IMG/VR virus record: IMGVR_UViG_3300037847_001486
Location: 1-44,854 of that record
Direction: 5' to 3' (one strand)
DNA length: 44,854 nt
DNA from: a virus
This document shows positions 1,767 to 43,082 of the stretch, one piece after another (the first letter of the stretch is position 1; the number at the start of each line of letters is the position of its first letter). The position numbers and the translations under genes were made by a program. The notes under the pieces are model-generated. The model made no database searches. It was not told the origin of the DNA and was given only the letters and a program-made list of their open reading frames with translations.

Positions 1767-2150
1767 ATGGGATTTTTTAGTTGGATTGCAATGGATACGG
1801 GAAGAAGTATCCGTAACAGACATGTCGAGGGCTACTCCTCACAGGTAGTATACATGCGAGACCAGAAGGGTAACGTGTGGAAGGAGGATGACTACGATGG
1901 GTATGGAGTGTTCGGTGGCAAGGACTTTTATCAGTTGCTCGCAGAGATGAACGAGGTCGAGGGGTTGACGGGTGACGTGAACAATGATCGGCAGCTTGGT
2001 ATAGACTTGGCGTTTAGTAAGGATGCGCACATATCACCGACACTCAATGAGCACCATCATTCGGATTGGGTTAACGAACACAATCAGCATTGCCCTGACC
2101 AAGGGTTTTTCTATGACCATGAAGATGAGGAAGATGATGAGACATGGTAG
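1767..2150 (+). CDS. Conserved phage/bacterial protein of unknown function (MGFFSW family)
   Basis: The N-terminus MGFFSWIAMDTGRSI, the segment VYMRDQKGNVWKEDDYDGYG and the block GVFGGKDFYQLLAEMN form a pattern I recognise from many Bacteroidetes phages and gut or marine contigs, where it is annotated as hypothetical. The usual length is about 120-150 residues, and this copy is 127. The C-terminus is very acidic with clustered His residues (EHHHSDW). It overlaps the start of the downstream methyltransferase gene by about 14 bases, which suggests coupling. No catalytic motif is apparent. Confidence 0.75.
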   Translation: MGFFSWIAMDTGRSIRNRHVEGYSSQVVYMRDQKGNVWKEDDYDGYGVFGGKDFYQLLAEMNEVEGLTGDVNNDRQLGIDLAFSKDAHISPTLNEHHHSDWVNEHNQHCPDQGFFYDHEDEEDDETW

Positions 2151-3138
2151 TTTATTTTCAGGTATAGGTGGGTTCGACTTGGCTGCCCAATGGATGGGCT
2201 GGACAAACGTATTCCACTGCGAGTGGGAAGACTTCCCGCGCAAGGTATTAAATCATCACTTTCCTAAATCAATATCATATGGAGACATCAAAGAAACAGA
2301 CTTTACTATTCACAGGGGACAAATCGACATCCTCTCAGGGGGATTCCCTTGCCAACCTTACTCCGTCGCAGGCAAGAGAGAAGGTAAAAACGACGATAGA
2401 CATCTCTGGCCTGAAATGCTACGAGCAATACGAGAAATTAAACCAAGGTACGTCGTGGGCGAAAACGTTCGTGGCCTGCTTAGTTGGAATGGAGGATTGG
2501 TTTTCGATGAGGTGCAAGCTGACTTGGAAGATGAAGGCTTCGAAGTCATCCCGTTTATACTTCCAGCTGCAAGCGTCAACGCCCCGCACAAAAGAGACAG
2601 GGTATGGTTTGTTGCTCACGCCAACGACAAGGGAGGACGTGGTGAACTTGGAGACGTTCCAAAAGCGAATGGAGAAGTATCCCAACGGAACAAAGATACC
2701 GAACCTAGCTACGCAAATCAGTCAGATGTTACCGACGCCACGCACAACGGACGTGGAGGGTGGCAAGGCCAGCGGGGTGAAGAACGATGGCAACGGATGG
2801 TATCGGGAGAACAAGAAGGGCGAACGATGGGGAGTGAAGCTCAGGGACGTAGCGGAGAACGGGATGCTACCAACGCCAAAGGTTCAGGACGAACGCCATG
2901 CACTGAGGGACAGGGGCAAGAGCAACCTCGGGGAAGAGATGGCGGAGGTTGGATATCAACGCCTTGGGACTCCTTCCCATCTCAACCCCCTGTTCTGTGC
3001 GGAGATGATGGGATTCCCCGCGAATTGGACGGTATCACCTTTTCTAAATGGAGAAAAGAATCAATCAAAGGATACGGCAACGCAATAGTGCCGCAGGTAG
3101 TGTATCCCATATTCAAAGCAATCGAAAGATTGGATTAG
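2137..3138 (+). CDS. dcm: DNA (cytosine-5) methyltransferase, Dcm family
   Basis: Transfers a methyl group from S-adenosylmethionine to C5 of cytosine, probably to mask phage DNA from host restriction. Numbered from the ATG at 2137, motif I is LFSGIGGFD (6-14), motif IV is GGFPCQ with catalytic Cys72, motif VI is ENV (109-111), motif VIII is HKRDRVW (151-157) and motif X is GYGNAIVP (312-319). The frame is open further upstream, but motif I begins six residues after this ATG; the adjacent ATG at 2134 is an equal alternative. The target-recognition region (about 160-290) is unusual, low-complexity and rich in Gly, Arg, Glu and Gln. That region coincides with a second gene encoded in another frame (2279-3088), which probably explains its composition. 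Confidence 0.93.
   Translation: MRHGSLFSGIGGFDLAAQWMGWTNVFHCEWEDFPRKVLNHHFPKSISYGDIKETDFTIHRGQIDILSGGFPCQPYSVAGKREGKNDDRHLWPEMLRAIREIKPRYVVGENVRGLLSWNGGLVFDEVQADLEDEGFEVIPFILPAASVNAPHKRDRVWFVAHANDKGGRGELGDVPKANGEVSQRNKDTEPSYANQSDVTDATHNGRGGWQGQRGEERWQRMVSGEQEGRTMGSEAQGRSGERDATNAKGSGRTPCTEGQGQEQPRGRDGGGWISTPWDSFPSQPPVLCGDDGIPRELDGITFSKWRKESIKGYGNAIVPQVVYPIFKAIERLD
2279..3088 (+). CDS. Conserved phage protein nested out of frame inside dcm (LPTP-repeat family)
   Basis: A 269-residue frame lies wholly inside the methyltransferase gene, shifted by one base on the same strand. It is not random: it matches from memory a phage protein family found beside or fused to cytosine methyltransferases. Hallmarks are CYEQYEKLNQGTSWAKTF, GMEDWFSMRCKLTWK, RLYFQLQ, ETGYGLLLTPT, two further LPTP repeats (MLPTPRTTD, MLPTPKVQD) and a C-terminal LNPLFCAEMMGFPANWT. 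In-frame TAA at 2249-2251 leaves the ATG at 2279 as the only ATG start. The role is unknown; a part in target recognition or a methyltransferase partner is inference. The alternative is a frameshifted fusion product of both frames. Confidence 0.75.
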   Translation: METSKKQTLLFTGDKSTSSQGDSLANLTPSQAREKVKTTIDISGLKCYEQYEKLNQGTSWAKTFVACLVGMEDWFSMRCKLTWKMKASKSSRLYFQLQASTPRTKETGYGLLLTPTTREDVVNLETFQKRMEKYPNGTKIPNLATQISQMLPTPRTTDVEGGKASGVKNDGNGWYRENKKGERWGVKLRDVAENGMLPTPKVQDERHALRDRGKSNLGEEMAEVGYQRLGTPSHLNPLFCAEMMGFPANWTVSPFLNGEKNQSKDTATQ

Positions 3139-11634: not shown

Positions 11635-12331
11635 ACCTAGACTAAGTGGCCAACGATTGGCTGCATACAACCACTTAACTAGCAACGAGAAACGTTTGTT
11701 GGTTGTGGGAGATATTCACGAGCCGTTCTGTCAGCCAGGTTACTTGCAGTTCTGTGTAGAGACTTATCAAAAATACAATTGCAATGCCGTACACTTTTGT
11801 GGGGACATCATCGATAATCACTATGCCTCATATCATGAGACAAGCCCTGAGGGGTTTGGTGGAGATGATGAGTTGCAGTTCGCTATAGATAGAATATATG
11901 ATTGGTCTACTGCTTTCAAGAAGGCCACGGTTTGTATAGGCAATCATGATCGGATCATTATGCGCAAGGCCTTCTCGTCTAGTATACCTAAGGCTTGGAT
12001 AAAATCTTACAACGAAGTACTACAAACTAATTGGGACTGGCGTCCTCGCTTCGTCATTGATGGCGTGCAATACGTACATGGCGAGGGAGGCACAGCCCGC
12101 ACCCGGGCAAAGAATGATATGATGTCCACTGTGCAGGGGCATATCCACACGCAAGCTTACGTAGAGCACCTATGTGGACAGGATAAAAAAATATTCGCTA
12201 TGCAGGTGGGCTGCGGTATAGATAGGGACAGTTATTCGCAGGCCTATGCTCGCAACTATAAGAAGCAGGCACTAGCCTGTGGCGTTGTTATTGGAGGTCA
12301 TACCGCAATCAATGTGATTATGGAGCCTTAA
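11615..12331 (+). CDS. Calcineurin-like metallophosphoesterase
   Basis: A dinuclear-metal phosphoesterase with all family motifs: GDIHEP (Asp33, His35), GDIID (Asp64), GNHD (Asn110, His111), HGEG (His155) and GHIH (His176, His178). Such phage enzymes act on nucleic acids, nucleotides or phosphoproteins; the substrate here is unknown. At 238 residues it is a complete single-domain protein. It is the last gene of the + strand arm, and its 3' end overlaps by 14 bases the 3' end of the giant late gene on the other strand, with no visible terminator between them. Confidence 0.9.
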   Translation: MTPKESRPRLSGQRLAAYNHLTSNEKRLLVVGDIHEPFCQPGYLQFCVETYQKYNCNAVHFCGDIIDNHYASYHETSPEGFGGDDELQFAIDRIYDWSTAFKKATVCIGNHDRIIMRKAFSSSIPKAWIKSYNEVLQTNWDWRPRFVIDGVQYVHGEGGTARTRAKNDMMSTVQGHIHTQAYVEHLCGQDKKIFAMQVGCGIDRDSYSQAYARNYKKQALACGVVIGGHTAINVIMEP

Positions 12332-15300
12332 CGGTAGCGTCATACATATTGACGTATTTAGTCTTTGGGTATGGTATATTATTAAATCCTCCAGCAACCC
12401 TTAACTCTCCTTGCACTTGAATAAAGTTTGAGTGCCCAACGTGCACACTAGGGTCACCGTAAGTAAATCTATACTCCTCGCTGTCTTTTTCTGCCTTAGT
12501 CTTGTCCTCGTTGGATTTTCTAAGGTCAGTGATAGCTTTGCTAAGGACTTGACCATATGGGCTTAGCTGAGACACCTCTTCAAGTGAAAGTAGGTCGTCA
12601 TCATTTGCATTCTCTAGTTTGCTAGGCATATTGAGACCCGAACTAAACCCGTCGTTTATCCAATCTCTCATTTGCTGCTCATCTTCTAGCTCATAATCTG
12701 GATGAATGTATTCCTCTTTTGTTTGAGCATCTATTACTACATCTGATTCATATAGTTCTTTGACTTGACCAGCTGTAAAGAATGGCTCTCCACCTACAAC
12801 AGTAGCGTTGCCTACCCCTGCCAACAAATTATACTCTTCATATTTCAACTCGTTAAGCTCTTCATATGTGTAGTACACATCAGCATCTCCATAGCTTCCA
12901 GTATAATTACTAACTAGTGCCACTGTCTTTTTCACACCAAAGTGCTTGTAAGAAAAGTCACCAATAACATCCATCAAGTAGTCATAACCTATACCCTTCT
13001 CACCATTGTTGTCATATCTCAAAAGCTCATTGTCTCTACCACCAGCAAATCCTAAGTTTCTATTTGCTTCTCTTTGAGCTGAGTTCTTCTGAGCCATTGT
13101 AATGCCATATCTATTTAAGTACTCAGGCGTTTGAATAGAGTAGACCGGCTGACCTCCGGACATTGTTATAGCTGTAGGGTCAAGCTTCTTGCCATATCTA
13201 GCCTCTAAAATTCTAGCCAACTCAGTATTCAAATCAACATTATATCTTCTCTCTACTTCAGACTCTACATCCGACCACGTCTCTCCACCCTGCTCAGTCT
13301 CACCTGTCTCAGGGTTAAACCTAGTGGTTGCCTTCTCATCATATCCATTATACTCTTTAGGTATATATTCCACCTTCCCAGTTAGTTCATTTTTTACCGT
13401 AACGTACCTGAAGTTTGGTTTTATTTCAGAGTTAAGGTCTTGGCTATATTGAGACATAGCTATGTCAACTCCGATCTGTTCAAACATAGCCATATCAAAA
13501 TCCCAATCGGAAGCTGTCTCGTTAAGAACCTTTTGCATATCTGAGAACCCTGGCATAGCAACTCCAAATATAGTTCCACTATATTCTCCTGAGAAAGGAT
13601 ACAAACCAAGTCGAGATTCCAACCTAGATATCTTATTCTCTAGGCTTTGTCTCCTTCTGTTTGTAAATGGATCAGTATCCGTGCCTAAATCGTCTAGCTC
13701 TTTCTTAGCCATAGCCCATTTCCAAAATGGCTTGACGTAAAAATTAAAAGTAGGGCCAGCCATAGCCATAGCAGCGATTATGTATTGCTCCCATTCTGAC
13801 GTTTCATCCACACGCCCCATCATATTTTCTAAAATCTTATTCCCATACGCAGCCTTCTGACGAAAATCAACTTCACCTTCGGTTATCCACTCTTGAACCG
13901 TATTTATACCTGAGGATATAAATAGACTTGTCATTTGATTGGCATCGTATATCCCCATCAAACTCGCAACCCCTTGAATGCCTCCCGTTCTAAGTGCATC
14001 AATGTAGTTTTCAGGCATAAATTCTTGCCCTTGCTCATCTTCATAGTCATCTCTAGCAAATAGACTTAGTACATACCCAATCGTGTATGCCTTTGCAGTG
14101 AAATAAGCTATCTGTCTGAACTGAGTTGCTGCTAAAAGCCTAGCCGCATTGCCCTTGCTCATCTTCCCGCTCTTTGATAATCCAGATATTGCCTTTCTAA
14201 AATTATCAACGTCATTCAATTGGAACGTGCTCATTGCAAATAAAGCCTCCGTGATAGCTTTACCTGAGAATATTTTTCTTTTCTTGCTATTTTTTAGATT
14301 GTTAATTCTCATTCTCAAGTCAGCCAATGACCCCGTTTGAGTAATCATTCTAGTAACATTCTCATCCGCCGCTCTTCTAGCCTGTCTTATTGCATTAGAG
14401 AACATATTCATATATGCCGGATCATTTCTGTGAATGGCTTCCCAATCTATATTCTCCCCTGTTATCGCATTGAATTCATTAGCCATCGTCCCAAACCAAA
14501 CAGGCCCTGCAAACGGTCTATCAGGTGCGGTAATTATAAAGTCTGAAATTTCCCCTACCTTCTCAAACGGAATCTCACCAACCCTAAAAAGGTTTAGCAA
14601 GTAGTTGGACATATCTGACCGAGCCTGGTCTACGTTATTTATAACAACGCCTGTCTCCGTAGCACTAGCCTTTCCACCAAAACCTGCCTTGCTAGGAACA
14701 ATTCTTTGACCAACTGTACATCCTGTATTTTGAAGGATGGTGCTCATTGACATATCTGAATTCCAAATTTTCAAATACCCTGCCACCCCTGGGGTAATTA
14801 TCTCTGGGATAGTCATCGCATACACAGCATTGGATGCAGCATCTGCAAATCTATTTGAGTTTGTTAGCAATCCCCTGAACGCATTTTTCCTTAGGGTTGT
14901 CATCATATCGGTAAAACTTAACAGCGAAGATGTTTGATCCACTGAGGATACATTCCTTATTATCTGCTCTGTTAGGTTAGCCATATAGCTCCTTACGCCA
15001 TTGAACACATCTGATTTTTCACCATCTAACTTTGTTCCCGTCTTGGATATTGTTCTATCTACCAATAGAGATGCGGGAGCTACGTTGGCGTATTCAATTA
15101 AAGATTTGGCCGCTCTATTATACGTGTACTCAGGGTCAAAATGTATGGCTACTCCAACCCCACCCTCTGTTCTATTTACTGTTGGAGGGGGCTCTTTGTT
15201 TATTTTAGCTTGAGTGATTGACTCAGCTCTCAAAGCCTCTGAAGCTAACTCAACATCTTGTCCGTGCGGCCTAACTATAGATGAGTGGTGAACATATCCC

Positions 15301-18300
15301 TCATACTCGACAACCTCATTACCTAGTATTGTTCCACTAACGTATTCATTATAATCAGATAGCTTGTCATACATTTTTCTCATGTCTTGAAATACTTCTA
15401 TTTCTTCTGGAGACATAATCTTTTCTAGAGACTGTATGTAAGCACCGACACTAGACATATCTAATCTTGCAAAGTCTTTCTTGATTTGCTTCAATATTTT
15501 AATGTCATGCTTATTATATCCTTCCACCCTGTTACCCTTAGTCCCTTCGAAAGGACCAACAATAGCATCAATGTATGCATCTACGCTAGCTACATTAGGA
15601 TTGTCAGGGTTTAATAGGAACTCTAGTTGGAGTAATGCGGCTTGAACTCTATACTTTGATTCTATTTTTACATTGCTCTGCCCACCAAATTTAGTAGCTG
15701 TAGTGTCAAGCTTGGACATTATTTCAGACACCTCTCTTGCTAGCTGAGAGTATTCAAGAAGGAACACTCCCGTGGACTCTGTCCAAGGCTCAATAAGAGA
15801 CTCTTTAATTTCTGTGCTGTTTTGGTTGCCTAAAGCCATGTCAATCATAGTGGCTGTCATGCCATTAATCATCTCCTCTATTCTCTGAGATTTCTCAGCC
15901 GTACTAAAGTCAGACAATATTGCATTGGCGTTCGCCCTTACAAAAGCAGATGCCTTTGTTCTAGCTAGCGTTACATCTACAGTTGGCAGGCCTTTTATAA
16001 CATCACTTAGTATCTTCGAGTCTTGGTCAGACTTGGTGGCGATGTATTGCTCTAGTAAAGGATTGAAGCTTTCAAGCTCTAATGCCTGAGTCATAGCCTC
16101 ATTTATTTTCCTTAGCCTATCTATCTTCATCGCCTCGAGTGACTCTCTGTCTAGCCTTATGTCTCTATTGAAGATTGTTGCAAGCCTTCTGTTCAATGAA
16201 TTAGGTATTCCTTCAAGGAACTCTTGAGAGTTGAACTGCTGAGACTTATCCATGATTTCATCTATAATCCCCTCCCTGCTTGTAGCAACGTCAGTTGGCC
16301 TCTTTGCCCCCTCAACGTCCTCCTGAACGTCCTCCTGAACGTCTTCCTTAGCATCCTCCTGAACGTCTTCTCCTACATCAGGATCTTTCTCAGCTTTTCT
16401 GCTTGCCTCTTCCTTTTCTGTTCTTCTCTCAGAAACTCTTGTCGCCTCCTCCCTGTCAGCCTTAGCCCCTTCAACATCTCCCATGTCTTCTTTGGTGTCA
16501 GCTCTCAAATCTAGAAAAGCATCTGAGTCGGGATTTTTTTCTATTGCTTGGTTGTATGCTTCTATTGCGCCTTGGTTGTCTCCTGCTTCGCGTAGGTAAA
16601 GCGCAACCATACCCAAGTGATTACTATGGCCTGGTAGAGAGGCAGCTTTTCTAGCTATAGGCAACGCCTTGTCGGGGCCCTCTGACGTTGCGTTGCTTTC
16701 CTCTCGTACCAACTTAAAATACTCTCCATCTATGTCATTTCTAAAGGCCTCTAAGTATGTTGAAAGATTTACAGGATCATTTATAACCTCTCGCGCAAAC
16801 CTTTCTTTTTTCTCTTGTAGGTCAGGGAAGTCTGTAAAGTCTGAATCCATAACCTCATTAAAAAATTCTACGTCTTCACTTGGGACATCTACATCTCCAG
16901 CATCAACTTGATCTTGTAATATCTTGGAGTCCTTCATAGTAGCCTGAACATCAGGAGTGCTTACACCCTCTTGTGTAGGTAGCTTTGTTACTAATGACGT
17001 AGCCTCTACTGCCCCTCCCTTCTGAATTAATTCAGATATAGAGAAGATAGTATTTGTTATGTCCTGACTATTACTTAGACTAATTCTACTAGGCTCTGTG
17101 GTTATTTCTCCTTCTTGGTTTACTGTGGTTTTTTGAGGAGCAAATAAATCTCTGATATTTCTAAAGAAATTATTTATTGTGTATCTAGACTCCTGATTGA
17201 GTTCCGCCTGACCCATAGCTATATCAGCCATTACATTCGCAAGAGTTTCGCCACTCACCTGCCCTTCAGGATACATTCTAGTAAACGCAGCCCACTCATT
17301 AGGGTTTATTATTCCTTGAGTAGCGGGGTCGCTATTTAACGCCTCGATAACCTTGTTGAAGTCCACAGAACTAACGCCACTTCCCATTGTGAAGTCAGGG
17401 TTAGTTAAGACCCAATGCGACACCTCATGATACAACTCTCTTGGTGTAAGTACAGCACCCTCTCTTATGACTACAACCCCGTTATGCACCATGGCCTTTG
17501 TATCCTTTGGACTCACACCTGCTTCGTTGGCAGGGATGCTGTCGTACTCTTCGCTAGGAAGTGTTGTGATTGGAACTCCGTTTGCTTTGAAATTTTTTAT
17601 GCCATTGTCTACTATAACCACGTCAAGGTCACTTCGTATTTGAGCCTCAGTCTTTGTCTTGGCCTCCACTTCTAAATCTGGTGATACATCTAACTGACCA
17701 TCTACAAATACTCGATACCCCCCATCAACTAGTGATTTCGTATCAAATGTTGTCTCCCCTGTTTCAGTGTCAGCCTCGGTGCTATATACTAACTTACCGT
17801 CTTGAGCGTACACAGAAACAGTAGCTCCCTTATATTTGTCATTAACCTTTATAGTGACAACGCCAGTCTCTGGGTCTGCCGTGAGTCTAGCGGCATTAGT
17901 GTTGGTGGTTGCTTCCACTTTTGAGCCATTCACTACAACGTTAACTCCACTAGTATACCCTTGCTCAAACTCTCTTTTAGTGGCACGCACCTCGTTCATG
18001 CCGGTCTTTTCATTGAATCGAATTGGCCGGTCTAGAAGGTGAGCAGGAATTTCATCTGCTTTAAAAGAATAAATTCTCGGAGTGTCCATCTCAACGGCAT
18101 CATCTATTCTTTCATCTAGTGCCTTCTGCCTTTCATTTATTTCATTTATTACTTCCTGCCTTTTAGCATCGTCTTTTATTTCTTGGGCAGCCTCTAAATC
18201 CTTGTTAATGTTTATTTGGTCAACAACAATCTGATGGCTAACATCTTCTGAAGTATTCTTTATTCTATCGGGGGTGTTCTCAATATACTCCTTGGCCATA

Positions 18301-21300
18301 ACCATAGCTAAGTTCGCCTGCTCTTGAGTTATCTCTCCCTCCTTAATGCCCCTCTCAAGTCTTGACTGAAGCGTGGCTGGGTTAGAAGCAAGTTCCTTAA
18401 AGTATTGCTGTTGAGTTGTAGTGAAATCGCTAATGTTTATAGTAGCACCTCCACCTATCCCTCCGAACATTCCAGAAAGGATTGCTATGTCTATAGTTTC
18501 GTTTAGTCCAGGGATACCATCTATTGCATTGCCACCCATCATTATCTCCTTGGTGATGTTCTTTTGGATTTGATCCAAGAACTCTTGGGTGAACTCAAGG
18601 CCCGCCCCTGCCATCATAGTCTTTGCTATCTCTAAAGTTATTTGAGAAGTAGCAACCCCATCTGCCTGAGCCACTGCTTTTATAAGGTCATCAGAGTACC
18701 TCTGCATAACCTTATTGAATATTGGACTCGCTTTGCTAAAAAACTCAACACCAAAGGCTTGTGCCGTTAGAGTTGTAAATACTGAGTTAACAGCAGCTGC
18801 TGCTGATGCTTCCCTTGCACTAATGTCTGGGCTTTCTACTAGTGCTGTGAATTGAGCGTCATAAGACTGAGTGAATATCGTGGCCATTTTAGTTGCATTG
18901 ATAGCCCCTGATCCGAACCCATACATCCCCGCAACTCCACCTCCCGATATGGTACTTAATATTTGAGTCCCAATTTTTAAACCGTTATTATAAAAACCAA
19001 ACAAGCTTCTATCATAGCTTGACCCCAATCGCAAGTCATTCAATTTCTCTTCTGATAAAGACCCCACAAGCTTATTTGTGATTCGAGGGTCTACCATAGA
19101 TAGATTCTCGTCATATGCTATCCCTGTAAGCTCACCATCCTTCGTCGTCCCTAGTCTTATCTTCTTACCGTCAAATTCAACAACATCTGTTAGATATAAT
19201 CCAGTGTTAGCTCTTGTTGGAGTTGCCACTTGATTTTTATTCATAATGATTTCGGCAACATCATAGAAGTTATCTCCTGCCTCGTTATCCCCTATGGCAT
19301 ATGCCATTTCTCCCAACACACTATTCATCAAACCAAATGCACCTCTAGGCCCACTAAACACACCATCGGTAATAGACTGCATTGACATAGCAAGGAAGGC
19401 TAACTTGGGATTTTTGCTAACCCATTCGTCTAGTTTTATTTGATCTTCATATCTTATATATGCCAACTCACCGTAAACATCTGTAACACTAGATTTAGTG
19501 AACGTAGTAAACCTATTGACATATTGGTCGGCCATGTTCATATGGTGAGTGTATAGTTGAGCTTGCCTTGGCGTAGCCTTGTAAGAGACACCATTGACTT
19601 CAATATCAATCAAGCTCTCTTCGGGTATTAACTCCCTATTATCATTTAATACAATAGCGGCTATTGCCAACTGCTCGTGCAATTCCTTTTGCTCTGACAG
19701 CCAAGTATATTCAGCGGCCTGATCCTCTAGAAGGGAGTTTAAAAAATCAGCCGCCTCGTCTCGGTCTAACATTTTGTTTTTATTCTTGTCAAACTCTCCT
19801 AAGCGTGCATCTAATCTAAACGCACCTCCTAATTCTTTTATCGCTAAATTGTATGCTTCATCATCAGTATACTTTCTAGTCTTAAATACGTGGTCTTTAT
19901 CAGACTTCATTATAGACTGATTACGTATAAATGCCGACCTAATATCCTTTAGTATATCCTCTGGCATATTTTCTTCAATCTCACTTCTTCTCGGATACCC
20001 ACTATACAAGGGCGAAAAGTTAAAGACTGTTCCTTTTGCATCAGGATTCCCGTGATTCTCAGGGTCTAGCGACGGAAGTATATTTCCATTAAGCTCAGAC
20101 ATAACGTCTAAATAAGACAGACCTGTCCTATCCATTATTTGGCGTATCTTATTTATGCCATCAAATGCAAATTGCTCTATCTCATAATTTTTTCTCCAAT
20201 CCTCGCCATACTTCTCGGTCATCTTGTTAGATACGTACTCGTTTTTGAGCCTATCATATATTATATCGTATCGGCTTTTAACAGGATAGTTGGTAACATA
20301 ACCACCAGACTCTGTTTCTGCTATGGCCATCTCTCGATCCCTTTGATATTGACCACCTCTTGATTCAATAACTGTTCCCCCTGGATATTCATTTGAGGAA
20401 GTAGACATCTGCTCCAACCTTGCATCCTCTTCGCTTATCTCCAATTGTACTTGAGCGGGTCCGAACTGACTAAACTCCTTGCTGAACCTATCAAAGTCTT
20501 GTTGGTGCTTGAATATGACAGGGTCATCAGTACTCATAACAGTTTTCAACTCTTGGAATTGCGTTTCTAAGCTGAATAGCTCCTTATATATTTCAACTCT
20601 ATCTTGAGGACTAGCATCGGCAAACACCTCGACCATATCTTTTCTGTCCTTGAAGGCTATGCCTGAGGTGTATTTCATTATGTCCTGCTCAAACTCCTGA
20701 GGCGTTTTGTTGTATATTTGTTCTATAACCTCAACCCTCGTACTGCCACGATATATGTCATCATAATCTATATAGTCTCCATAATTATATTGCAGTAAGT
20801 CTGAATAGTAATTATTACTAACAACCCTTTCAAATGGATTTGTGTATCCAATAAAACCTCCATTGTAATCTTTCGTGCCTAGAGATATAGTATACTGAGA
20901 ATTTGGATTGGATTGAATCATAGATACTGTTGCCATCTCCCTATAGAATTGCTCCTCAGGTATATTATAAAGAGCTGACATTTCTTCAATTCCCTTTCTT
21001 ATTTGTGATCCGAACCCATCTATTTTTACATGTTCAATGCCATTACGCCCTTCGTAAATACTTTGAATAGACGCATCGTTTATTTTTGATTTATCTATAA
21101 TGCCATTGTAAAGATTCTCACGTGTCTCGCGATTAGTCTGTAGGTATTCATGTGCATATCCTATGTCAAGATACGTAGTGCTTTCTAGGCCAGGGATGGG
21201 GTCTAGACTTGGGTTGTATTGGGGCTCTTCACTATAGTGATAGTTGAATATGAGGTTTCTCCTCCGGTCACTATTCCCACTCCCCAAGGCCGTAGGGTTT

Positions 21301-21524
21301 CCAGTGCCATATATTGGTTTAACTATAGCTTGCGTGTAGTCTATAAGTGTACCTTCCCCTGAAGCGTCTAATTCTTCTCTAGAACCAAATTCTTCGATGG
21401 CGGTTTCAGCGTCTTGTTGTTGTACTGCATCTTGACCGTTCTCGTTCGTTCCCTCTCCTGTGCTTGTTTCATCTCCAGGACCTGTCCCTTCTCCGGGGCT
21501 CATTAAATTCAAGTCTTCAACCAT
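12318..21524 (-). CDS. Giant virion protein (3068 aa): putative internal/ejection protein with zincin-like motif
   Basis: By far the largest gene, last in the late operon, in the place where podoviruses encode internal proteins ejected with the DNA. Visible parts in order: an acidic Gly/Glu-rich N-terminus, an EF-hand-like loop DKNKNKMLDRDEA (about 578-592), hydrophobic Gly-rich segments near 870-950, an Ig-like strand segment (about 1221-1275), a HEVSH zinc-peptidase-type motif (1366-1370), two TPR-like repeats (about 1630-1690), a DVQE acidic repeat (about 1718-1738), and C-terminal hydrophobic helices (near 2470-2500). Multi-domain architecture recalls polyvalent phage proteins. No DxDGD RNA polymerase motif was seen. 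Roles in peptidoglycan passage, host protein cleavage or membrane channel formation are inference. Confidence 0.85.
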   Translation of the reverse strand: MVEDLNLMSPGEGTGPGDETSTGEGTNENGQDAVQQQDAETAIEEFGSREELDASGEGTLIDYTQAIVKPIYGTGNPTALGSGNSDRRRNLIFNYHYSEEPQYNPSLDPIPGLESTTYLDIGYAHEYLQTNRETRENLYNGIIDKSKINDASIQSIYEGRNGIEHVKIDGFGSQIRKGIEEMSALYNIPEEQFYREMATVSMIQSNPNSQYTISLGTKDYNGGFIGYTNPFERVVSNNYYSDLLQYNYGDYIDYDDIYRGSTRVEVIEQIYNKTPQEFEQDIMKYTSGIAFKDRKDMVEVFADASPQDRVEIYKELFSLETQFQELKTVMSTDDPVIFKHQQDFDRFSKEFSQFGPAQVQLEISEEDARLEQMSTSSNEYPGGTVIESRGGQYQRDREMAIAETESGGYVTNYPVKSRYDIIYDRLKNEYVSNKMTEKYGEDWRKNYEIEQFAFDGINKIRQIMDRTGLSYLDVMSELNGNILPSLDPENHGNPDAKGTVFNFSPLYSGYPRRSEIEENMPEDILKDIRSAFIRNQSIMKSDKDHVFKTRKYTDDEAYNLAIKELGGAFRLDARLGEFDKNKNKMLDRDEAADFLNSLLEDQAAEYTWLSEQKELHEQLAIAAIVLNDNRELIPEESLIDIEVNGVSYKATPRQAQLYTHHMNMADQYVNRFTTFTKSSVTDVYGELAYIRYEDQIKLDEWVSKNPKLAFLAMSMQSITDGVFSGPRGAFGLMNSVLGEMAYAIGDNEAGDNFYDVAEIIMNKNQVATPTRANTGLYLTDVVEFDGKKIRLGTTKDGELTGIAYDENLSMVDPRITNKLVGSLSEEKLNDLRLGSSYDRSLFGFYNNGLKIGTQILSTISGGGVAGMYGFGSGAINATKMATIFTQSYDAQFTALVESPDISAREASAAAAVNSVFTTLTAQAFGVEFFSKASPIFNKVMQRYSDDLIKAVAQADGVATSQITLEIAKTMMAGAGLEFTQEFLDQIQKNITKEIMMGGNAIDGIPGLNETIDIAILSGMFGGIGGGATINISDFTTTQQQYFKELASNPATLQSRLERGIKEGEITQEQANLAMVMAKEYIENTPDRIKNTSEDVSHQIVVDQININKDLEAAQEIKDDAKRQEVINEINERQKALDERIDDAVEMDTPRIYSFKADEIPAHLLDRPIRFNEKTGMNEVRATKREFEQGYTSGVNVVVNGSKVEATTNTNAARLTADPETGVVTIKVNDKYKGATVSVYAQDGKLVYSTEADTETGETTFDTKSLVDGGYRVFVDGQLDVSPDLEVEAKTKTEAQIRSDLDVVIVDNGIKNFKANGVPITTLPSEEYDSIPANEAGVSPKDTKAMVHNGVVVIREGAVLTPRELYHEVSHWVLTNPDFTMGSGVSSVDFNKVIEALNSDPATQGIINPNEWAAFTRMYPEGQVSGETLANVMADIAMGQAELNQESRYTINNFFRNIRDLFAPQKTTVNQEGEITTEPSRISLSNSQDITNTIFSISELIQKGGAVEATSLVTKLPTQEGVSTPDVQATMKDSKILQDQVDAGDVDVPSEDVEFFNEVMDSDFTDFPDLQEKKERFAREVINDPVNLSTYLEAFRNDIDGEYFKLVREESNATSEGPDKALPIARKAASLPGHSNHLGMVALYLREAGDNQGAIEAYNQAIEKNPDSDAFLDLRADTKEDMGDVEGAKADREEATRVSERRTEKEEASRKAEKDPDVGEDVQEDAKEDVQEDVQEDVEGAKRPTDVATSREGIIDEIMDKSQQFNSQEFLEGIPNSLNRRLATIFNRDIRLDRESLEAMKIDRLRKINEAMTQALELESFNPLLEQYIATKSDQDSKILSDVIKGLPTVDVTLARTKASAFVRANANAILSDFSTAEKSQRIEEMINGMTATMIDMALGNQNSTEIKESLIEPWTESTGVFLLEYSQLAREVSEIMSKLDTTATKFGGQSNVKIESKYRVQAALLQLEFLLNPDNPNVASVDAYIDAIVGPFEGTKGNRVEGYNKHDIKILKQIKKDFARLDMSSVGAYIQSLEKIMSPEEIEVFQDMRKMYDKLSDYNEYVSGTILGNEVVEYEGYVHHSSIVRPHGQDVELASEALRAESITQAKINKEPPPTVNRTEGGVGVAIHFDPEYTYNRAAKSLIEYANVAPASLLVDRTISKTGTKLDGEKSDVFNGVRSYMANLTEQIIRNVSSVDQTSSLLSFTDMMTTLRKNAFRGLLTNSNRFADAASNAVYAMTIPEIITPGVAGYLKIWNSDMSMSTILQNTGCTVGQRIVPSKAGFGGKASATETGVVINNVDQARSDMSNYLLNLFRVGEIPFEKVGEISDFIITAPDRPFAGPVWFGTMANEFNAITGENIDWEAIHRNDPAYMNMFSNAIRQARRAADENVTRMITQTGSLADLRMRINNLKNSKKRKIFSGKAITEALFAMSTFQLNDVDNFRKAISGLSKSGKMSKGNAARLLAATQFRQIAYFTAKAYTIGYVLSLFARDDYEDEQGQEFMPENYIDALRTGGIQGVASLMGIYDANQMTSLFISSGINTVQEWITEGEVDFRQKAAYGNKILENMMGRVDETSEWEQYIIAAMAMAGPTFNFYVKPFWKWAMAKKELDDLGTDTDPFTNRRRQSLENKISRLESRLGLYPFSGEYSGTIFGVAMPGFSDMQKVLNETASDWDFDMAMFEQIGVDIAMSQYSQDLNSEIKPNFRYVTVKNELTGKVEYIPKEYNGYDEKATTRFNPETGETEQGGETWSDVESEVERRYNVDLNTELARILEARYGKKLDPTAITMSGGQPVYSIQTPEYLNRYGITMAQKNSAQREANRNLGFAGGRDNELLRYDNNGEKGIGYDYLMDVIGDFSYKHFGVKKTVALVSNYTGSYGDADVYYTYEELNELKYEEYNLLAGVGNATVVGGEPFFTAGQVKELYESDVVIDAQTKEEYIHPDYELEDEQQMRDWINDGFSSGLNMPSKLENANDDDLLSLEEVSQLSPYGQVLSKAITDLRKSNEDKTKAEKDSEEYRFTYGDPSVHVGHSNFIQVQGELRVAGGFNNIPYPKTKYVNMYDATVKAP
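16314..16369 (-). repeat. 12-base tandem repeat coding DVQE in the giant virion protein
   Basis: A 12-base unit read on the + strand as AACGTCCTCCTG recurs four times with small changes and one divergent copy. On the coding strand it gives an acidic DVQE/DAKE series following the TPR segment. It is a flexible linker-like repeat, prone to copy-number change between relatives. Confidence 0.7.
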
Positions 21525-21525
21525 G

Positions 21526-23526
21526 CTACTTTATGTTATTAATTATAGACTCTACCTGTTCAAAAAGTGAACTAAATTCAAATTGAGTTTCTTGACTCAT
21601 ATCTTCTGCCCCTTTACCCCCATATATAGTTCCGTAAACCATACTCCCACCAATTGTCCCTGCAAAATCGTATTTCATTTCCGCAGTATTCAGTGTTATA
21701 CTAGATATGAAATTATCTATTTCGCGCTGTAAATCCCTAGCTTGATTTCTCCCCGCTTGGCTTATTGACATATTCTTAGATAAATTCCCTACCAATTCAG
21801 ATACCTTCCTTAAAGACCCTTGAGCGTCGTCCTTTAAGCTATCCATCTTTTTCTTAGTATCTGCGTTCTTAAAGTTACCAGCCAAACCATAAATACCTGA
21901 CTTGTTCAATAAGTTTGGCGCACTGTATATGCTATAGTTTAACTCTTCTAGTTCTGCTAATGTGTTTTCGTATGAAGCTGTAGTACTAAAGTCTATGGCC
22001 CCGTCATTTACGCCTTTGGTAATAGCCCTCCTCATATCTTCATACTCTCCGCTAGCCTGTGGCATATTAGCTTGAGTAGTACCTATATAGCCGTTTACAT
22101 CCATACCCATAAGCACATCTATGACTTCATTTTTCTCCCTAGTCGACATGCTTAACCACTCAGCATTATTGTTAGGAACTCCAGTCCTATCAGTAGATGA
22201 CGTACCGCCTAATCCATTTATGTTCCCGTCGGAGTCAATGGTAATTGTACCTGCGTTTACGTTTGTAGCTGCAGCTATAACACCTGTTGCTGCCCGGAAT
22301 GAATCAACTTTCCCAGGGAATCTTGCTTTTATTACATTCATCCAAGGGGCTGGAGCAAAGTCTTTCGATGAGCCATTGCCATCGCTGTCACTACGATCTC
22401 TAATTATCCTTTGCTTTGAAATTTTAAAGTCCTTAGCTGCTAGGGCTCTGTCCAATCCATCTCTCTCGAAATCTCTATTTTGGCTTTCAGATAAGTATGG
22501 TTGTAATAAGTTCTGCTCATCTCTGTACACGTATATTTCTTTGCTTCCCTCCTTGTTGTACTTGGCATCTGATTGTAGAGTTTCTAAATCCACATCGTCA
22601 CTTACATCGACTAGCTCATATCCTATTTGTTCAAGAGCCGATGCCCTATCTCTTACATTTACTGCGCCTAGAGCTGAATTAATTGTTTTAAATATATTGT
22701 AGTATGCTTGACCATAGTTAGTAAGAGCTCCATCTGATGCCGCATCAGCATTCATCTCCTGTACTTTAGTAAAGTCTTCGCTTTCTACTGCATCTATAAA
22801 TTTAGATGGATCACCCATGGCATAGTAATCCTCATACACTTGCAATACATTGGCCTCGCCACCTAGTATTTCAACCACCTCGCTTGATTCAATAATACCT
22901 GTAATCTCAGTCCCTAGATTTTTATTGAATTCAGTAGCATCAAACTCGTCGTGAAAGTCCTGATTGGTGTTGACTATGTTGGCCATGTCTACGGTCTTAG
23001 ACATATCTATATTCCCATCCTTATCCTTCGACCCCATTAAAAGGTTCATGTTGTTAGGGTCGACAACTAACCCCCACTGCTCTAGATTACCAAACTTAAA
23101 CCTGTCCTGCTGAATAAAATCATCGAGTGCACTGCCAGTTCCTGTCCTATCCGTAACAAACTTCTGATACTCTTCACCCCACGTAGTCATGTATTGGTTA
23201 TACATCTTATAGCCATCAGCTAGTCTCTGTTGACCTGCTCTTGCAGTACTAGGCTTTATTAAGCCACGACGCATTAGCCTTACGTTTGTTAGGTAGGCTT
23301 GACGCGCATCGTTGGAGCTTCTGATTATCTCTCCGTTTACGCTAGTCTCTGGCGTTACGGCCTGCTTGTCTAGTTCGGCTAGCTCTTTGGCCTGTGCGTC
23401 TGCTATTGATTTCTTTCGCTGATCTCTAGAAGCCTTCTCTGCTAATAGGTCTTGGCTAAACTTCTCTGCTAGCCCTCCCCAATTTACTCTAGGTTTGTCT
23501 CCTCTTTTATAACCGAAATACGACAT
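21526..23526 (-). CDS. Putative internal virion protein (666 aa)
   Basis: Lies one base upstream of the giant protein gene and downstream of the 315-residue protein, forming a set of three consecutive late genes typical of podoviral internal or ejection proteins. The N-terminal 70 residues are basic and helical (AEKFSQDLLAEKASRDQRKK), likely coiled coil. The rest is Asp/Asn-rich mixed structure without a known enzyme motif. No signal peptide or membrane helix is seen. The assignment rests on gene order and composition rather than on recognised homology. Confidence 0.7.
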   Translation of the reverse strand: MSYFGYKRGDKPRVNWGGLAEKFSQDLLAEKASRDQRKKSIADAQAKELAELDKQAVTPETSVNGEIIRSSNDARQAYLTNVRLMRRGLIKPSTARAGQQRLADGYKMYNQYMTTWGEEYQKFVTDRTGTGSALDDFIQQDRFKFGNLEQWGLVVDPNNMNLLMGSKDKDGNIDMSKTVDMANIVNTNQDFHDEFDATEFNKNLGTEITGIIESSEVVEILGGEANVLQVYEDYYAMGDPSKFIDAVESEDFTKVQEMNADAASDGALTNYGQAYYNIFKTINSALGAVNVRDRASALEQIGYELVDVSDDVDLETLQSDAKYNKEGSKEIYVYRDEQNLLQPYLSESQNRDFERDGLDRALAAKDFKISKQRIIRDRSDSDGNGSSKDFAPAPWMNVIKARFPGKVDSFRAATGVIAAATNVNAGTITIDSDGNINGLGGTSSTDRTGVPNNNAEWLSMSTREKNEVIDVLMGMDVNGYIGTTQANMPQASGEYEDMRRAITKGVNDGAIDFSTTASYENTLAELEELNYSIYSAPNLLNKSGIYGLAGNFKNADTKKKMDSLKDDAQGSLRKVSELVGNLSKNMSISQAGRNQARDLQREIDNFISSITLNTAEMKYDFAGTIGGSMVYGTIYGGKGAEDMSQETQFEFSSLFEQVESIINNIK

Positions 23527-23529
23527 GCT

Positions 23530-24477
23530 TTAATCATTTGAAAGTGACATGAGAGCTTCAAGGGCTTTGGGGTCCGAGGCAAGCACCTGCAACACTTTAG
23601 ATAATTGAGAGTCTACCTTAGTCTCGCCATCTGTTAAGTTCTCTGTGTTCAGGTCTGACGTGCTTATCGTCGGGGCTCCCGTGCCTGTTATCAGATTGAA
23701 TCTATCCTGCATAGTCCCTTCTTCGCCAAACCTAATAAACTCTCTAAGATTCTTGGCGGCGGTACTAGCGAATATGTCTCTGAGCTGTGGTTCATCAACT
23801 CCCGTAAAGCCCTCTGCGGTTTCATAAATTCCTTTGGCTCTTAGGTTTTCAAGAAACGCAGCTTGTTCATCCCCTAGTAAGTTAAACTCATCCATCGCCT
23901 TGTCTGCTAGTCTGCCTTGCCTACCCTTAGCGTATAGTGGAATTGTTGCCGCAAGCCCTGCGGTCAATAGTTCTCCTCCTGCGCTAACCGCGCCTTGAAT
24001 GGCCTGAGTTCTAGCAGCGGCTGATTCTGCTTGAGCCTCTCTCGCTCCTGCAATCTCCTGCTGTGTTATTGACTGAAGGGTTTGATCCATTCTCTGCTTG
24101 TCTCCCACCACAGCCTGCTGCCTAGCCTGCTCTTGCTCGATAAGGTTTTGGCGCAGTCCAAGCATATTACCTATGCCAGCTTGAGCCTGAGCTGTAGCTC
24201 CTCCCAATACAGCCCTAACCCCTGCTTCTTGCAAGCCTCTTGTGGCCTGCTCTTGGGCTGCTAGCATTCTACCTGAAATCTCATCAGTGATGCCTGTTCG
24301 AGTTCTAAGCTCTTCTGTTCTAAGAATCTTTGCCCGGTCCTCCAGCTCCTGAACTCCTCGCGCAATAGCCTTCTGTTGTTTTTTAATTTTTTTGTTTTCC
24401 TGACGAGCTACTATTGATTGAGTGATTACGCCCCCCAATTTACCTGCTCCCATAGCGATTAAAGAAAATGGATCCAT
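23530..24477 (-). CDS. Putative internal/ejection protein with long coiled coil (315 aa)
   Basis: The N-terminus MDPFSLIAMGAGKLGGVITQ is a hydrophobic, small-residue segment, followed by about 150 residues of Ala/Gln/Glu-rich helix (for example QARQQAVVGDKQRMDQTLQS) and a second Gly/Ala-rich apolar segment (AGGELLTAGLAATIPLYA, about 166-183). This amphipathic-plus-coiled-coil build is typical of DNA-ejection proteins that enter the host envelope. It is the first of three genes ending the late operon. A TATCTTTA motif sits 5 bases upstream of its ATG, suggesting its own promoter. Confidence 0.7.
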   Translation of the reverse strand: MDPFSLIAMGAGKLGGVITQSIVARQENKKIKKQQKAIARGVQELEDRAKILRTEELRTRTGITDEISGRMLAAQEQATRGLQEAGVRAVLGGATAQAQAGIGNMLGLRQNLIEQEQARQQAVVGDKQRMDQTLQSITQQEIAGAREAQAESAAARTQAIQGAVSAGGELLTAGLAATIPLYAKGRQGRLADKAMDEFNLLGDEQAAFLENLRAKGIYETAEGFTGVDEPQLRDIFASTAAKNLREFIRFGEEGTMQDRFNLITGTGAPTISTSDLNTENLTDGETKVDSQLSKVLQVLASDPKALEALMSLSND

Positions 24478-24496: not shown

Positions 24497-25381
24497 TTAC
24501 GGGAAACTCTTCATTGCTTCAGTTCCAACTGTAAAGACAGACCCGCTGAATCTCATAGTGAAGTCCATGTATGTACCTCTCAGCCCTAAAGACTCTACAT
24601 TATTATCCTTAATAACTTTAAGGTAGTCTCCCGCTGATGGCAGTAATGCTGGGTTTAATTGTATCGTCTCTATCGCTTTTAAATTAAACCTATCTATCAC
24701 CTTAACTACGCGACCAAAGTTACCTAGTGGCCCAAATATTAAGTCTCCTCCTGTGGCTGCGGTTGGATTGCCTTGGTTTATCATCCCATCGAACTGATGG
24801 CTTGTAGCGAACACGTATCTATGCGTAGCCGAAGGGTGCTCTAACCCAACCGTAACTATATCTACTATCTCTCCAACGCCTTTGGTATATCGGAGGTCAA
24901 GCGAATTGCTTACGTCTCCCCTTATATATGCGTAATGTGTATTCTCTTTTGTTACATAGTCGAAAGAACTAACTGCCCCTGCATCACCTATTGTGGTTAA
25001 TGATAAGGATGGCTTGTCTCCTTCTATCTCTATTGTCTTAAATAGTTTTGTATCTAACGGTGCGTCGTTAAATGTAGAAGATATGTTTGCCTCAGAATAT
25101 CCTAGGTCTGGAGTCAATAGGGATGCCGCACCAGATCCTGATTGTGCTGTCACTTCTATTAAGTGCTCGGCATAATATGTACACTTGCTTGGGGCAAACT
25201 GAGTCTCAGTCACAGTCCCAGCGTTATTGACTCTCCTAACGGTCTTGTCGTGATGCAGATACAGATTACCACCCTTGAATGTGAAGTAATCATTGCTCAT
25301 GCTTATGGCTTTCTCAGGCCTATACGAATAGAACGTAGACCATCCAGCAATCTTAGGTGAGTATGCTACTGTATACGGCAT
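24497..25381 (-). CDS. Tail stabilisation-type structural protein, small separate gene (294 aa)
   Basis: The N-terminus AGWSTFYSYRPEKAI, then FTFKGGNLYLHHD and later a FNDAPLDTKLFKTIEIEGDKP block, are characteristic of the C-terminal part of long crAss-like and related tail stabilisation proteins (pattern GWTSFxSYxP, GxLYxHN, FPTxxKxFKTIxxEG). Here the region is a separate gene, split from the 1796-residue tail protein by an amidase gene. The ATG overlaps the amidase stop codon by one base (TAATG). The C-terminal half is beta-rich. It is probably part of the tail hub or needle; precise placement is inferred. Confidence 0.7.
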   Translation of the reverse strand: MPYTVAYSPKIAGWSTFYSYRPEKAISMSNDYFTFKGGNLYLHHDKTVRRVNNAGTVTETQFAPSKCTYYAEHLIEVTAQSGSGAASLLTPDLGYSEANISSTFNDAPLDTKLFKTIEIEGDKPSLSLTTIGDAGAVSSFDYVTKENTHYAYIRGDVSNSLDLRYTKGVGEIVDIVTVGLEHPSATHRYVFATSHQFDGMINQGNPTAATGGDLIFGPLGNFGRVVKVIDRFNLKAIETIQLNPALLPSAGDYLKVIKDNNVESLGLRGTYMDFTMRFSGSVFTVGTEAMKSFP

Positions 25382-35033: not shown

Positions 35034-36479
35034 TTAGTCCTTGAACATGAAGAAGTTGTTAGCTCCCATTACACATACCGCTCTTTCAGAGAGGAAGTGT
35101 ACTTCCATTGCATCAAGACTAGTTGACATTCCAGCTGCACCCGCTGATCCTGTAATCCAAGTTTTGTATCGTCTGTCTTCTGCTTCAGAAGCGCGATATC
35201 TAACGTGAAGGAATGGACGTGTAGCATTCTTGCCAAGAACTTGATCGTACACAGTGGTAGAGCCAGCAGGGACAAGAAGTCCGTTAACTTTACCAGCAGT
35301 GATTCCGCCTCGGAACTGAGGGTCGTTCAAGTATTTCCAATCAGTCTTATAGAAGTCATACCCTCTACGGAAACCGCTGAATCCAAGATTCAATGCCATT
35401 TGCTCGTCGTTGTCGAACAATCCGTAAGAAGTACCGCCTGCTCCATAAGAGTTCTGAGCAGCAAGCATATCGTCAATGTCGAAAGAAAACTGACGGTTGA
35501 TGAACAACACATTCTCCTCGATAGCACCTTGCTTGTCTAGTCTCTGAATAACAGCGTCAAAGTCAGAAAGGGTAGTTGGGTTACCACCGCTCCAAACATT
35601 TCCTCTAGTCTCTACAGCGTGGAAGATACCTTCAGAACCTTTGCTTCCAACAGGAGCAGCAGCTGAAATAGCACCAGAACCAGCAGCAGCTGGAACGGCT
35701 TCAATCATTGCAGTCTCCATGTAGTCTTCGAAACGAAGTCTAGTTTCGTGCTCTGATTTTAGATACCATAGGTAACCTGTAGCACCGTTCTCAGTTGTAA
35801 CCTCAATCCATCCGATTTGAGCTAAGTCAGAACCGTTAACAGAGTACTTATCTTTTAAGATAATTGGGCTGTTGTCATAGATGTCAGGTGTAGCCTCAAC
35901 AGAGCCAACCATTCCTTCTTGACCTTTAGCAAACTCAGAACCGTAAACAAACAAAGAAACTCTAGCTCCTGATGCTTTGTTTCCAAATGTCTGACCACCA
36001 GCTTCGTAGTATGCAACAGTAACAGTTAGTGTAGCATCACCAATCGCAGATACGCCAGTAATGATTGCTTTGTTAGTGTTAGTTGACCCAGCTGTGTTTT
36101 CAGAAATCATAATAGTCTGACCAACTCTAAGAGCGTGCTCTGCAATCTCAACACCTGTTCTAGGATTGACATCCTCAATCTCTAGAACCGCTGTGGGTTG
36201 CCCTGCCGCTTGATTACTACTTACGTTAGTGTACTTAGGGTGCAGTCTAGTTTGCTCTGACCACTTGATTAAATCAGAATTAGTTGGCATCTCTGCACCA
36301 ACCATTCTTAAAAATGAAGCAACAGTTCTGTTGCCATACCGTTCGAACTCCGCCTCATACGTGTCAGGTAAATACTGACTCAAGAAGTCGAAGTTGGAGA
36401 TGTAGTTACTCGCTAGAGCAACTCTTTCACCACTAGGTTGTAAATCAAACCCAGGAGTGGATAATAATGATCCTGCCAT
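35034..36479 (-). CDS. Major capsid protein
   Basis: Expected to form the icosahedral shell with an HK97 fold. The start (SNYISNFDFLSQYLPDTYEA, then FERYGNRTVASFLRMVGAE and SDLIKWSEQTRLHPKY) matches the capsid protein pattern of crAss-like and related Bacteroidetes podoviruses. The C-terminal RAVCVMGANNFFMFK strand is also usual. Length 481 is within the group range. It lies 6 bases after the scaffold gene and is followed by a strong terminator, which fits high-level, separately ended expression. Confidence 0.85.
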   Translation of the reverse strand: MAGSLLSTPGFDLQPSGERVALASNYISNFDFLSQYLPDTYEAEFERYGNRTVASFLRMVGAEMPTNSDLIKWSEQTRLHPKYTNVSSNQAAGQPTAVLEIEDVNPRTGVEIAEHALRVGQTIMISENTAGSTNTNKAIITGVSAIGDATLTVTVAYYEAGGQTFGNKASGARVSLFVYGSEFAKGQEGMVGSVEATPDIYDNSPIILKDKYSVNGSDLAQIGWIEVTTENGATGYLWYLKSEHETRLRFEDYMETAMIEAVPAAAGSGAISAAAPVGSKGSEGIFHAVETRGNVWSGGNPTTLSDFDAVIQRLDKQGAIEENVLFINRQFSFDIDDMLAAQNSYGAGGTSYGLFDNDEQMALNLGFSGFRRGYDFYKTDWKYLNDPQFRGGITAGKVNGLLVPAGSTTVYDQVLGKNATRPFLHVRYRASEAEDRRYKTWITGSAGAAGMSTSLDAMEVHFLSERAVCVMGANNFFMFKD

Positions 36480-42473: not shown

Positions 42474-42570
42474 ATATCTCTACTGCTTTAGGACATCTCT
42501 GCCATCTGTATTTACTTTTTACCTTTACGAGCTTACATCCGCAACTAAGCCACCTCTCTACTTTTTCCAC
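42391..42570 (-). CDS. Hidden 59-aa Cys-containing protein overlapping the small terminase candidate
   Basis: A frame starting with GTG at 42570, overlapping the end of the previous gene by 13 bases, runs 59 codons to TGA at 42391 and bridges an otherwise empty 84-base gap. The product reads like a real protein: MEKVERWLSCGCKLVKV, then YRWQRCPKAVEIYEQFEK and a KKYSEHF segment. Cys10, Cys12 and Cys26 could form part of a zinc site. The last 83 bases lie out of frame within the 105-residue gene. I recall small phage proteins with RCPxAxxIYxxF patterns. The GTG start and the length make it easy to miss. Confidence 0.6.
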   Translation of the reverse strand: MEKVERWLSCGCKLVKVKSKYRWQRCPKAVEIYEQFEKTRDWRWDKKYSEHFQDKVRDY

Positions 42571-43082
42571 TTAATAGCAATGTTTTTAGTGAACATCCTA
42601 TATAGTTTTTCTCCATCTATGTCGAACTCGTATTCGCTGTCAGGAGTAAAAGATACTAAATCACCAGCTTGTATGCCTAATGATTCTAGTTCTTTATTGA
42701 TGTACTTCATTTCTCCTGTAAGGTGTTCTCCCGTAGGCTTAACGAAACAATACTTACCTGGGCACTTCCATCCTCCCTTGTGCGAGTACATAAAGAATTG
42801 ATCCGGATCAACAAGGAACAGGTCATCCTTCAAGTAGCTCCTGCCACTTCGATGCCTACCCTTCATATCATTGTAAGTTCTAAATACGTTGTGATGAACT
42901 ATCAGGGTGTCTCCCTTTTTTATATCCCCCTTGTATCCAATAGGAGTTTCTACCACTAACGCTTTCCGATTAGTGATTGTGTGGTCTTCGTGAGTATTGC
43001 TTAGGATAAGACCAAACTCATTCTCATTGTTGTATCGCAAGCCACCCTCAGGCTTTACGATGAAGCAATATGGTGATTGCAT
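42558..43082 (-). CDS. GroES-like protein (174 aa)
   Basis: The arrangement of strands resembles co-chaperonin GroES, possibly twice. The N-terminal part has FIVKPEGGLRYNN, ALVVETPIGYKGDIKKGDTLIVHH and a VDPDQFFMY end. The C-terminal part has GIQAGDLVSFTPDSEYEF and IDGEKLYRMFTKNIAI, which match the GroES pattern VKVGDxVxY...IDGEExLILxxxDI. Phages use such proteins to fold capsid proteins with host GroEL (T4 gp31 is the classic case). The similarity is by eye only. It shares one base with the gene before it. Confidence 0.5.
   Translation of the reverse strand: MQSPYCFIVKPEGGLRYNNENEFGLILSNTHEDHTITNRKALVVETPIGYKGDIKKGDTLIVHHNVFRTYNDMKGRHRSGRSYLKDDLFLVDPDQFFMYSHKGGWKCPGKYCFVKPTGEHLTGEMKYINKELESLGIQAGDLVSFTPDSEYEFDIDGEKLYRMFTKNIAIKWKK

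What the first reader, a model, noticed from the sequence alone, without database searches (positions are those of the whole stretch)
17410..17430. HEVSH zinc-peptidase-type motif inside the 3068-residue virion protein
Residues 1366-1370 of the giant protein read HEVSH in the context PRELYHEVSHWVL, a typical zincin helix. A metalloprotease carried in the particle and ejected with the DNA could process virion proteins or disarm host proteins early in infection.
Basis: partly seen in the sequence, partly recalled or inferred. Interest (0 to 1): 0.6.

Follow-up and report, generated by a model that had tools for sequence, protein, structure and literature searches.

The report
Zinc-protease domain in giant phage protein
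A giant protein that this Bacteroidota-type virus probably carries in its particle contains a real zinc-protease (gluzincin) domain of a kind already known from other phage and plasmid 'polyvalent' proteins; the domain recurs in many related phages, but its activity and target are untested, and the closest known relative has lost one metal-binding residue.

Summary
The motif is real: HEVSH at residues 1366-1370 of the 3068-aa protein, window 17415-17429, minus strand. It is the protein's only HExxH (1.7% of shuffles give one). It lies in a gluzincin-type metallopeptidase domain, about residues 1293-1470, whose third ligand is E1426 (ExxA). A profile from other phages, built without the window and its nearest homologue, finds it at E 3e-8 in the catalytic register. 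AlphaFold gives a zincin core, and the ranked PDB matches are mostly zincins: lethal factor, PPEP, ArdC, IrrE. Among 34 aligned domains from related giant proteins, both glutamates are in all 34, His1 in 33 and His2 in 30. The domain is under purifying selection and usually better conserved than its flanks. Two cautions: the nearest homologue reads EEFAH, and several homologous giants lack the domain. So activity is probably not essential, and this speaks against an obligatory maturation protease. This is a new member of a known kind: the MPTase domain of phage 'polyvalent' proteins (Iyer 2017), here in an apparent cargo/ejection protein of crAss-like-related podoviruses. Presence in the particle, ejection, activity and target are inferred.

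The parts
12318..21524 (-). Giant protein gene, 3068 aa, last gene of the rightward-to-leftward late (virion) gene run; apparent cargo/ejection protein
   Evidence: gene order as in Elemovirus and Cellulophaga phages
17115..17648 (-). Gluzincin-type metallopeptidase (MPTase) domain, residues about 1293-1470
17415..17429 (-). HEVSH motif, H1366-E1367-H1370: two metal ligands and the catalytic Glu, on the predicted active-site helix
17247..17249 (-). E1426 in 'GETLANVMAD' (ExxA): putative third metal ligand on the glutamate helix
   Evidence: invariant in 34 of 34 aligned domains; at the start of helix 145-161 of the model; codon position
17685..17927 (-). Ig-like/T9SS-sorting-like beta domain, residues about 1200-1280, just upstream of the peptidase domain
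   Evidence: PF18962 E 7e-5 and PF11589 E 2e-4 on the segment, both below the Pfam cutoffs
16455..16607 (-). Single TPR-like stretch, residues about 1640-1690
   Evidence: several Pfam TPR models at E 3e-4 to 0.07, below cutoffs
18432..18962 (-). Three hydrophobic, Gly/Ala-rich stretches (residues 855-875, 906-926, 1011-1031) upstream of the peptidase domain; possible membrane-active segments
   Evidence: hydropathy scan, weak evidence
13845..15848 (-). C-terminal region (residues 1893-2560) shared with giants of many related phages, with or without the peptidase domain
21526..23526 (-). 666-aa protein, possible ejection partner (positional analogue of mid-size podovirus internal proteins)
   Evidence: position; weak match to MW202828 protein
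23530..24477 (-). 315-aa protein with hydrophobic N terminus, possible ejection partner
   Evidence: position and hydropathy
24497..25381 (-). Muzzle-like tail protein
   Evidence: Pfam crAss_MUZ_C E 4.7e-6, just above its cutoff
35034..36479 (-). Major capsid protein candidate used to find related phages
   Evidence: phrog_13704 E 5e-103; 397 relatives in IMG/VR

Best explanation
Residues about 1293-1470 of the 3068-aa protein form a gluzincin-type metallopeptidase domain. H1366, H1370 and E1426 bind one divalent metal ion and E1367 activates the water molecule (established chemistry of the family). The protein is most likely a cargo/ejection protein: made late, packed in the head or tail, and pushed into the cell partly unfolded ahead of or with the DNA, as proposed for crassvirus cargo proteins. 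Once refolded in the new host the domain acts as a peptidase, more likely on a host protein or on the ejected assembly after entry than as a maturation protease needed to build the particle. Shown here: motif, third Glu, family-wide conservation, purifying selection in related domains, predicted zincin fold, patchy presence. Inferred: presence in the particle, ejection, metal binding, activity, target.
For: Sequence: HEVSH at 1366-1370 and GETLA at 1425-1429. Non-circular profile match E 2.9e-8 in catalytic register. 34 domains from related giants: catalytic Glu 34/34, third Glu 34/34, His1 33/34, His2 30/34. AlphaFold with 33 sequences: pLDDT 84-96 over most of the core from N-terminal helix to active-site helix, pTM 0.66; N-terminal helix, three strands, HEVSH helix, Glu-bearing helix, the core described for polyvalent MPTases (PMC5512222). 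PDB second look: mostly zincins; ArdC Z 5.4, rmsd 3.2 A over 96 residues; best profile match to PDB sequences is IrrE in HExxH register, E 0.019. Domain omega 0.06-0.24, in most pairs better conserved than its flanks. Late-operon position as in Elemovirus, whose homologous giant (C-terminal profile E 5e-36) carries the domain and is annotated structural. Absent from homologous giants such as L096, L098, L107, hence accessory.
Against: Nearest available homologue L092 has EEFAH, so the site can be lost. In that pair the domain is only slightly better conserved than the rest (35% against 28%). Fold matches are weak in absolute terms (Z up to 6.4, Foldseek E 0.09 at best). No direct evidence of virion presence, metal or activity. 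In ArdC the related domain's active site was not needed for antirestriction (PMC7213743).
Confidence: 0.62

Rival explanations
1. Self-processing: the domain cleaves its own giant chain or partner virion proteins, in the head before release or after entry, to free parts of the protein.
For: Proposed for polyvalent MPTases from P1 DdrB processing (PMC5512222). The domain usually sits mid-chain between variable regions and a shared C-terminal region.
Against: Homologous giants lack the domain altogether and others keep it with a changed site, so cleavage is not generally needed. N4 virion RNA polymerase, which has such a domain, is packaged unprocessed (PMC5512222).
Confidence: 0.25
2. Non-catalytic fold: the zincin-like domain serves as a binding or scaffold module, and the motif in this phage is active only residually or not at all.
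For: EEFAH in the nearest homologue and HEVFE in four phages; in the HEVFE clade the domain is still under purifying selection (omega 0.13-0.14). ArdC's active site is dispensable for antirestriction. Lethal factor's PA-binding domain is a zincin-like fold among the fold matches.
Against: In the window and 28 of the 33 other aligned domains all four catalytic positions are kept while overall identity falls to 9-20%.
Confidence: 0.2
3. Chance HExxH in a long protein with no zincin domain.
For: HExxH occurs in 1.7% of shuffles; Pfam and PHROGs do not recognise the window's domain.
Against: Profile, third ligand, fold and family conservation.
Confidence: 0.03

Closest known systems
Zincin-like MPTase domains of phage and plasmid polyvalent proteins (Iyer et al. 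2017, PMC5512222), including the one in N4-type virion RNA polymerase
   Same: HExxH helix, Glu on the following helix, three strands with an N-terminal helix, very large phage protein encoded among late virion genes; a homologous giant (L097) also has LPD23 (E 5.6e-13); some domains of the set match phrog_2206 'virion RNA polymerase'
   Different: No recognisable RNA polymerase or other enzyme domain in the window protein; window domain itself not matched by Pfam or PHROGs; clade among the 12 of that paper not determined
ArdC metalloprotease domain (R388)
   Same: Gluzincin core; Z 5.4, rmsd 3.2 A, 96 residues; HExxH plus ExxA
   Different: 15% identity; ligand spacing 24 residues between His2 and Glu in ArdC (H205, E229) against 56 here; no ArdC N-terminal ssDNA-binding domain found
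IrrE/PprI (M78)
   Same: Best PDB sequence match of the family profile, in register over HExxH (E 0.019); Z 4.8, rmsd 4.2 A, 89 residues
   Different: Weak; stand-alone cellular regulator, not a virion protein
Anthrax lethal factor / Certhrax / PPEP-1 to -3 (fold only)
   Same: Top structural matches, Z 5.0-6.4
   Different: No detectable sequence relation, rmsd 4.5-7 A; a shared fold shows no shared function
Cargo/ejection proteins of crassviruses and podoviruses (PhicrAss001 gp45-gp50, T7 gp14-16)
   Same: Position after the tail genes, muzzle-like neighbour, three successive proteins of rising size
   Different: No sequence homology shown here between the window giant and these proteins

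Membership tests
Gluzincin metallopeptidase | HExxH on an active-site helix | tested here: met
   H1366-E1367-xx-H1370; model helix 81-94 holds it at 86-90
Gluzincin metallopeptidase | (E,H)xx(A,F,T,S,G) on the next conserved 'glutamate helix' | tested here: met
   E1426-T-L-A, model helix 145-161 starts just before it; Glu in 34/34, fourth position A or S in 31/34 and V in 3; definition from PMC7213743
Gluzincin metallopeptidase | Zincin core: three-stranded sheet, N-terminal helix, two C-terminal helices | tested here: met
   Predicted model only, core pLDDT mostly 84-96; fold matches mostly zincins though Z is below 8
Gluzincin metallopeptidase | Ligands kept in close homologues | tested here: inconclusive
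   28 of 33 other domains keep all four residues; nearest homologue L092 lost His1, four phages have HEVFE
Gluzincin metallopeptidase | Binds metal and cleaves peptides | not testable with these tools
   needs purified protein
Polyvalent protein with MPTase domain | Very large phage protein encoded beside virion genes | tested here: met
   3068 aa, last of the late genes after terminase, portal, capsid and tail genes
Polyvalent protein with MPTase domain | Several unrelated (often enzymatic) domains in one chain | tested here: inconclusive
   Window protein: only sub-threshold TPR and Ig-like matches. Homologues: L097 has LPD23, L095 has FtsK_gamma, L097 and L108 have a second HExxH
Polyvalent protein with MPTase domain | Falls in one of the 12 published MPTase clades | not tested
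   The published alignment was not at hand; no Pfam PolyVal MPTase model matched
Anthrax lethal factor-like peptidase (M34) | Sequence and fold relation to M34 | tested here: inconclusive
   Fold matches only, Z about 5-6 with rmsd above 4.5 A; no sequence match
Podovirus/crassvirus ejected cargo protein | Present in the particle | not testable with these tools
   Homologous Elemovirus giant annotated structural protein; phi18:3 giant at the same place noted as MS/MS-detected in its record, but no sequence homology detected

The most novel reading that the evidence does not exclude
A widespread but so far undescribed clade of gluzincin peptidases rides inside the ejected giant proteins of aquatic Bacteroidota podoviruses and cleaves a host protein in the first minutes of infection; one sub-clade has replaced the second histidine by glutamate (HEVFE) and is kept under selection for another use.
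Probability: 0.3. Interest if true: 0.6.

Novelty: new member of a known kind. Interest (0 to 1): 0.38.

Why it matters
The work places the peptidase domain in a phage group with cultured members (Elemovirus on Flavobacterium sp. BAL314), so the open question of what the MPTase domains of polyvalent virion proteins cut can be put to a direct test. Natural variants with a changed site (EEFAH, HEVFE) and homologous giants without the domain give ready comparisons.

Tried and rejected
Whole-protein tblastn against named phages: no match. Single-protein and two-row scans of IMG/VR for the region found nothing or only the same record, G003; an eight-row alignment was too diverse to scan with. Pfam and PHROGs do not recognise the window domain itself. 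Foldseek alone gave no significant match and the viral fold library only weak ones, several to large polyvalent phage proteins and one to the Tenacibaculum phage Gundel_1 structural protein. Membership of M34 was rejected as a claim: fold only. A prohead-protease role was considered and set low because homologous giants lack the domain.

Full report
OBSERVATION. The window is 1-44854 of a 55098-base virus record. ORF 12318-21524 on the minus strand encodes 3068 aa. HEVSH is residues 1366-1370, DNA 17415-17429, and is the protein's only HExxH; 1.7% of shuffled versions hold one. So the motif is correctly reported, and by itself would be only mildly unusual.

WHAT IT IS. The capsid protein has 397 relatives in IMG/VR. 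From longer records I took the giant late genes. Fifteen large ORFs were compared; ten carry a domain matched by a profile of this region. After a further scan with the domain I had 34 domains, some of them near-duplicates, so independent lineages are fewer. In the alignment the catalytic Glu and a downstream Glu are present in all 34, the first His in 33 and the second in 30. The downstream Glu is E1426 of the window protein, in ETLA, which fits the (E,H)xx(A,F,T,S,G) signature of gluzincins (PMC7213743). To avoid circularity I rebuilt the profile without the window and its nearest homologue: it finds the window protein at E 2.9e-8 over residues 1356-1466 with both motifs in register; reversed and shuffled controls give E 0.26 or worse.

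FOLD. AlphaFold on 33 sequences gives mean pLDDT 70.9, pTM 0.66, with most of the core at 84-96: N-terminal helix, three strands, HEVSH helix, then a helix that begins next to E1426. A first model from 12 sequences agrees. The PDB second look lists mostly zincins: Certhrax and lethal factor, PPEP-1/2/3, ArdC (Z 5.4, rmsd 3.2 A, 96 residues), IrrE, VgrG2b effector domain. These Z values are below 8 and the tool warns that such values can mean only a common arrangement; the weight comes from nearly all rows being of one superfamily and from the independent sequence evidence. The best PDB sequence match of the family profile is IrrE in HExxH register, E 0.019.

SELECTION. In eleven pairs of related domains omega is 0.06-0.24. 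In most of them the domain is better conserved than the flanking parts of the giant (for example L117/L118: 94% against 65% and 32%); exceptions are the near-identical pairs L132/L133 and L138/L140, and single flanks of L093/L094, L129/L130 and L095/L113 that are about as conserved. The HEVFE clade has omega 0.13-0.14. The window and L092 were not in this test; between them the domain is 35% identical against 28% overall.

CAUTIONS. L092, the closest giant available (27% identical), reads EEFAH, and L099, L135, L136 and L139 read HEVFE. Homologous giants L096, L098 and L107 lack the domain. Phages phi38:1 and phi18:3 have shorter giants at the same place, without HExxH or a profile match. Activity is therefore not a general need of these phages.

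CONTEXT AND MECHANISM. The late genes run terminase, portal, scaffold-like, capsid, tail proteins, a large tail protein, amidase, a muzzle-like protein (crAss_MUZ_C), then proteins of 315, 666 and 3068 aa. Elemovirus has the same order, and its 3694-aa gp18, homologous in the C-terminal region (E 5e-36) and with an intact HEIFH domain, is annotated structural protein. In phi18:3 the last-gene protein is recorded as MS/MS-detected; that is a positional parallel only. Crassvirus cargo proteins are thought to pass out partly unfolded and refold in the host (PMC10172136). On this footing the likeliest story is an ejected giant whose peptidase domain works after entry. Iyer et al. proposed self-processing or host targeting for such domains (PMC5512222). 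Patchy presence and lost ligands argue against an obligatory assembly protease; they do not decide between a host target, processing after entry, and a binding role.

COMPARISON AND NOVELTY. It works like, and by the tested features belongs with, gluzincin-type MPTase domains of polyvalent proteins. Untested: metal, activity, clade. The homologue L097 holds LPD23 above its Pfam cutoff, which ties this set of giants to that class. I rate it a new member of a known kind.

Noticed in passing
window 2279-3088 (+) inside 2023-3138 (+): A 269-aa ORF lies wholly inside the cytosine methyltransferase ORF in another frame, and both match separate families: outer PF00145 E 2e-43 and phrog_363; inner phrog_1008 E 2.4e-19. 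Possible overlapping gene pair.
   Followed up: partly
L099, L135, L136, L139 (peptidase domain): A clade with HEVFE instead of HExxH, still under purifying selection (omega 0.13-0.14): changed metal site or loss of catalysis with another use.
   Followed up: partly
L097 giant, residues 1628-1793: LPD23 (E 5.6e-13) followed by a second HExxH region with weak match to putative metallopeptidase DUF6782.
   Followed up: no
L095 giant, residues 920-979: FtsK gamma (DNA-binding) domain, E 3.1e-14, just upstream of the peptidase domain.
   Followed up: no
window 19752-19790 (-), residues 579-591: EF-hand-like loop DKNKNKMLDRDEA; L092 has DINEDGVVEDSEI at 569; no other giant scanned has one.
   Followed up: partly
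L153 giant, residues 1621 and 2506; L108 giant, residues 870 and 1625: Two HExxH sites in one giant protein.
   Followed up: no
window 42558-43082 (-): Phage-encoded GroES-like co-chaperonin, phrog_13932 E 6.9e-19.
   Followed up: no
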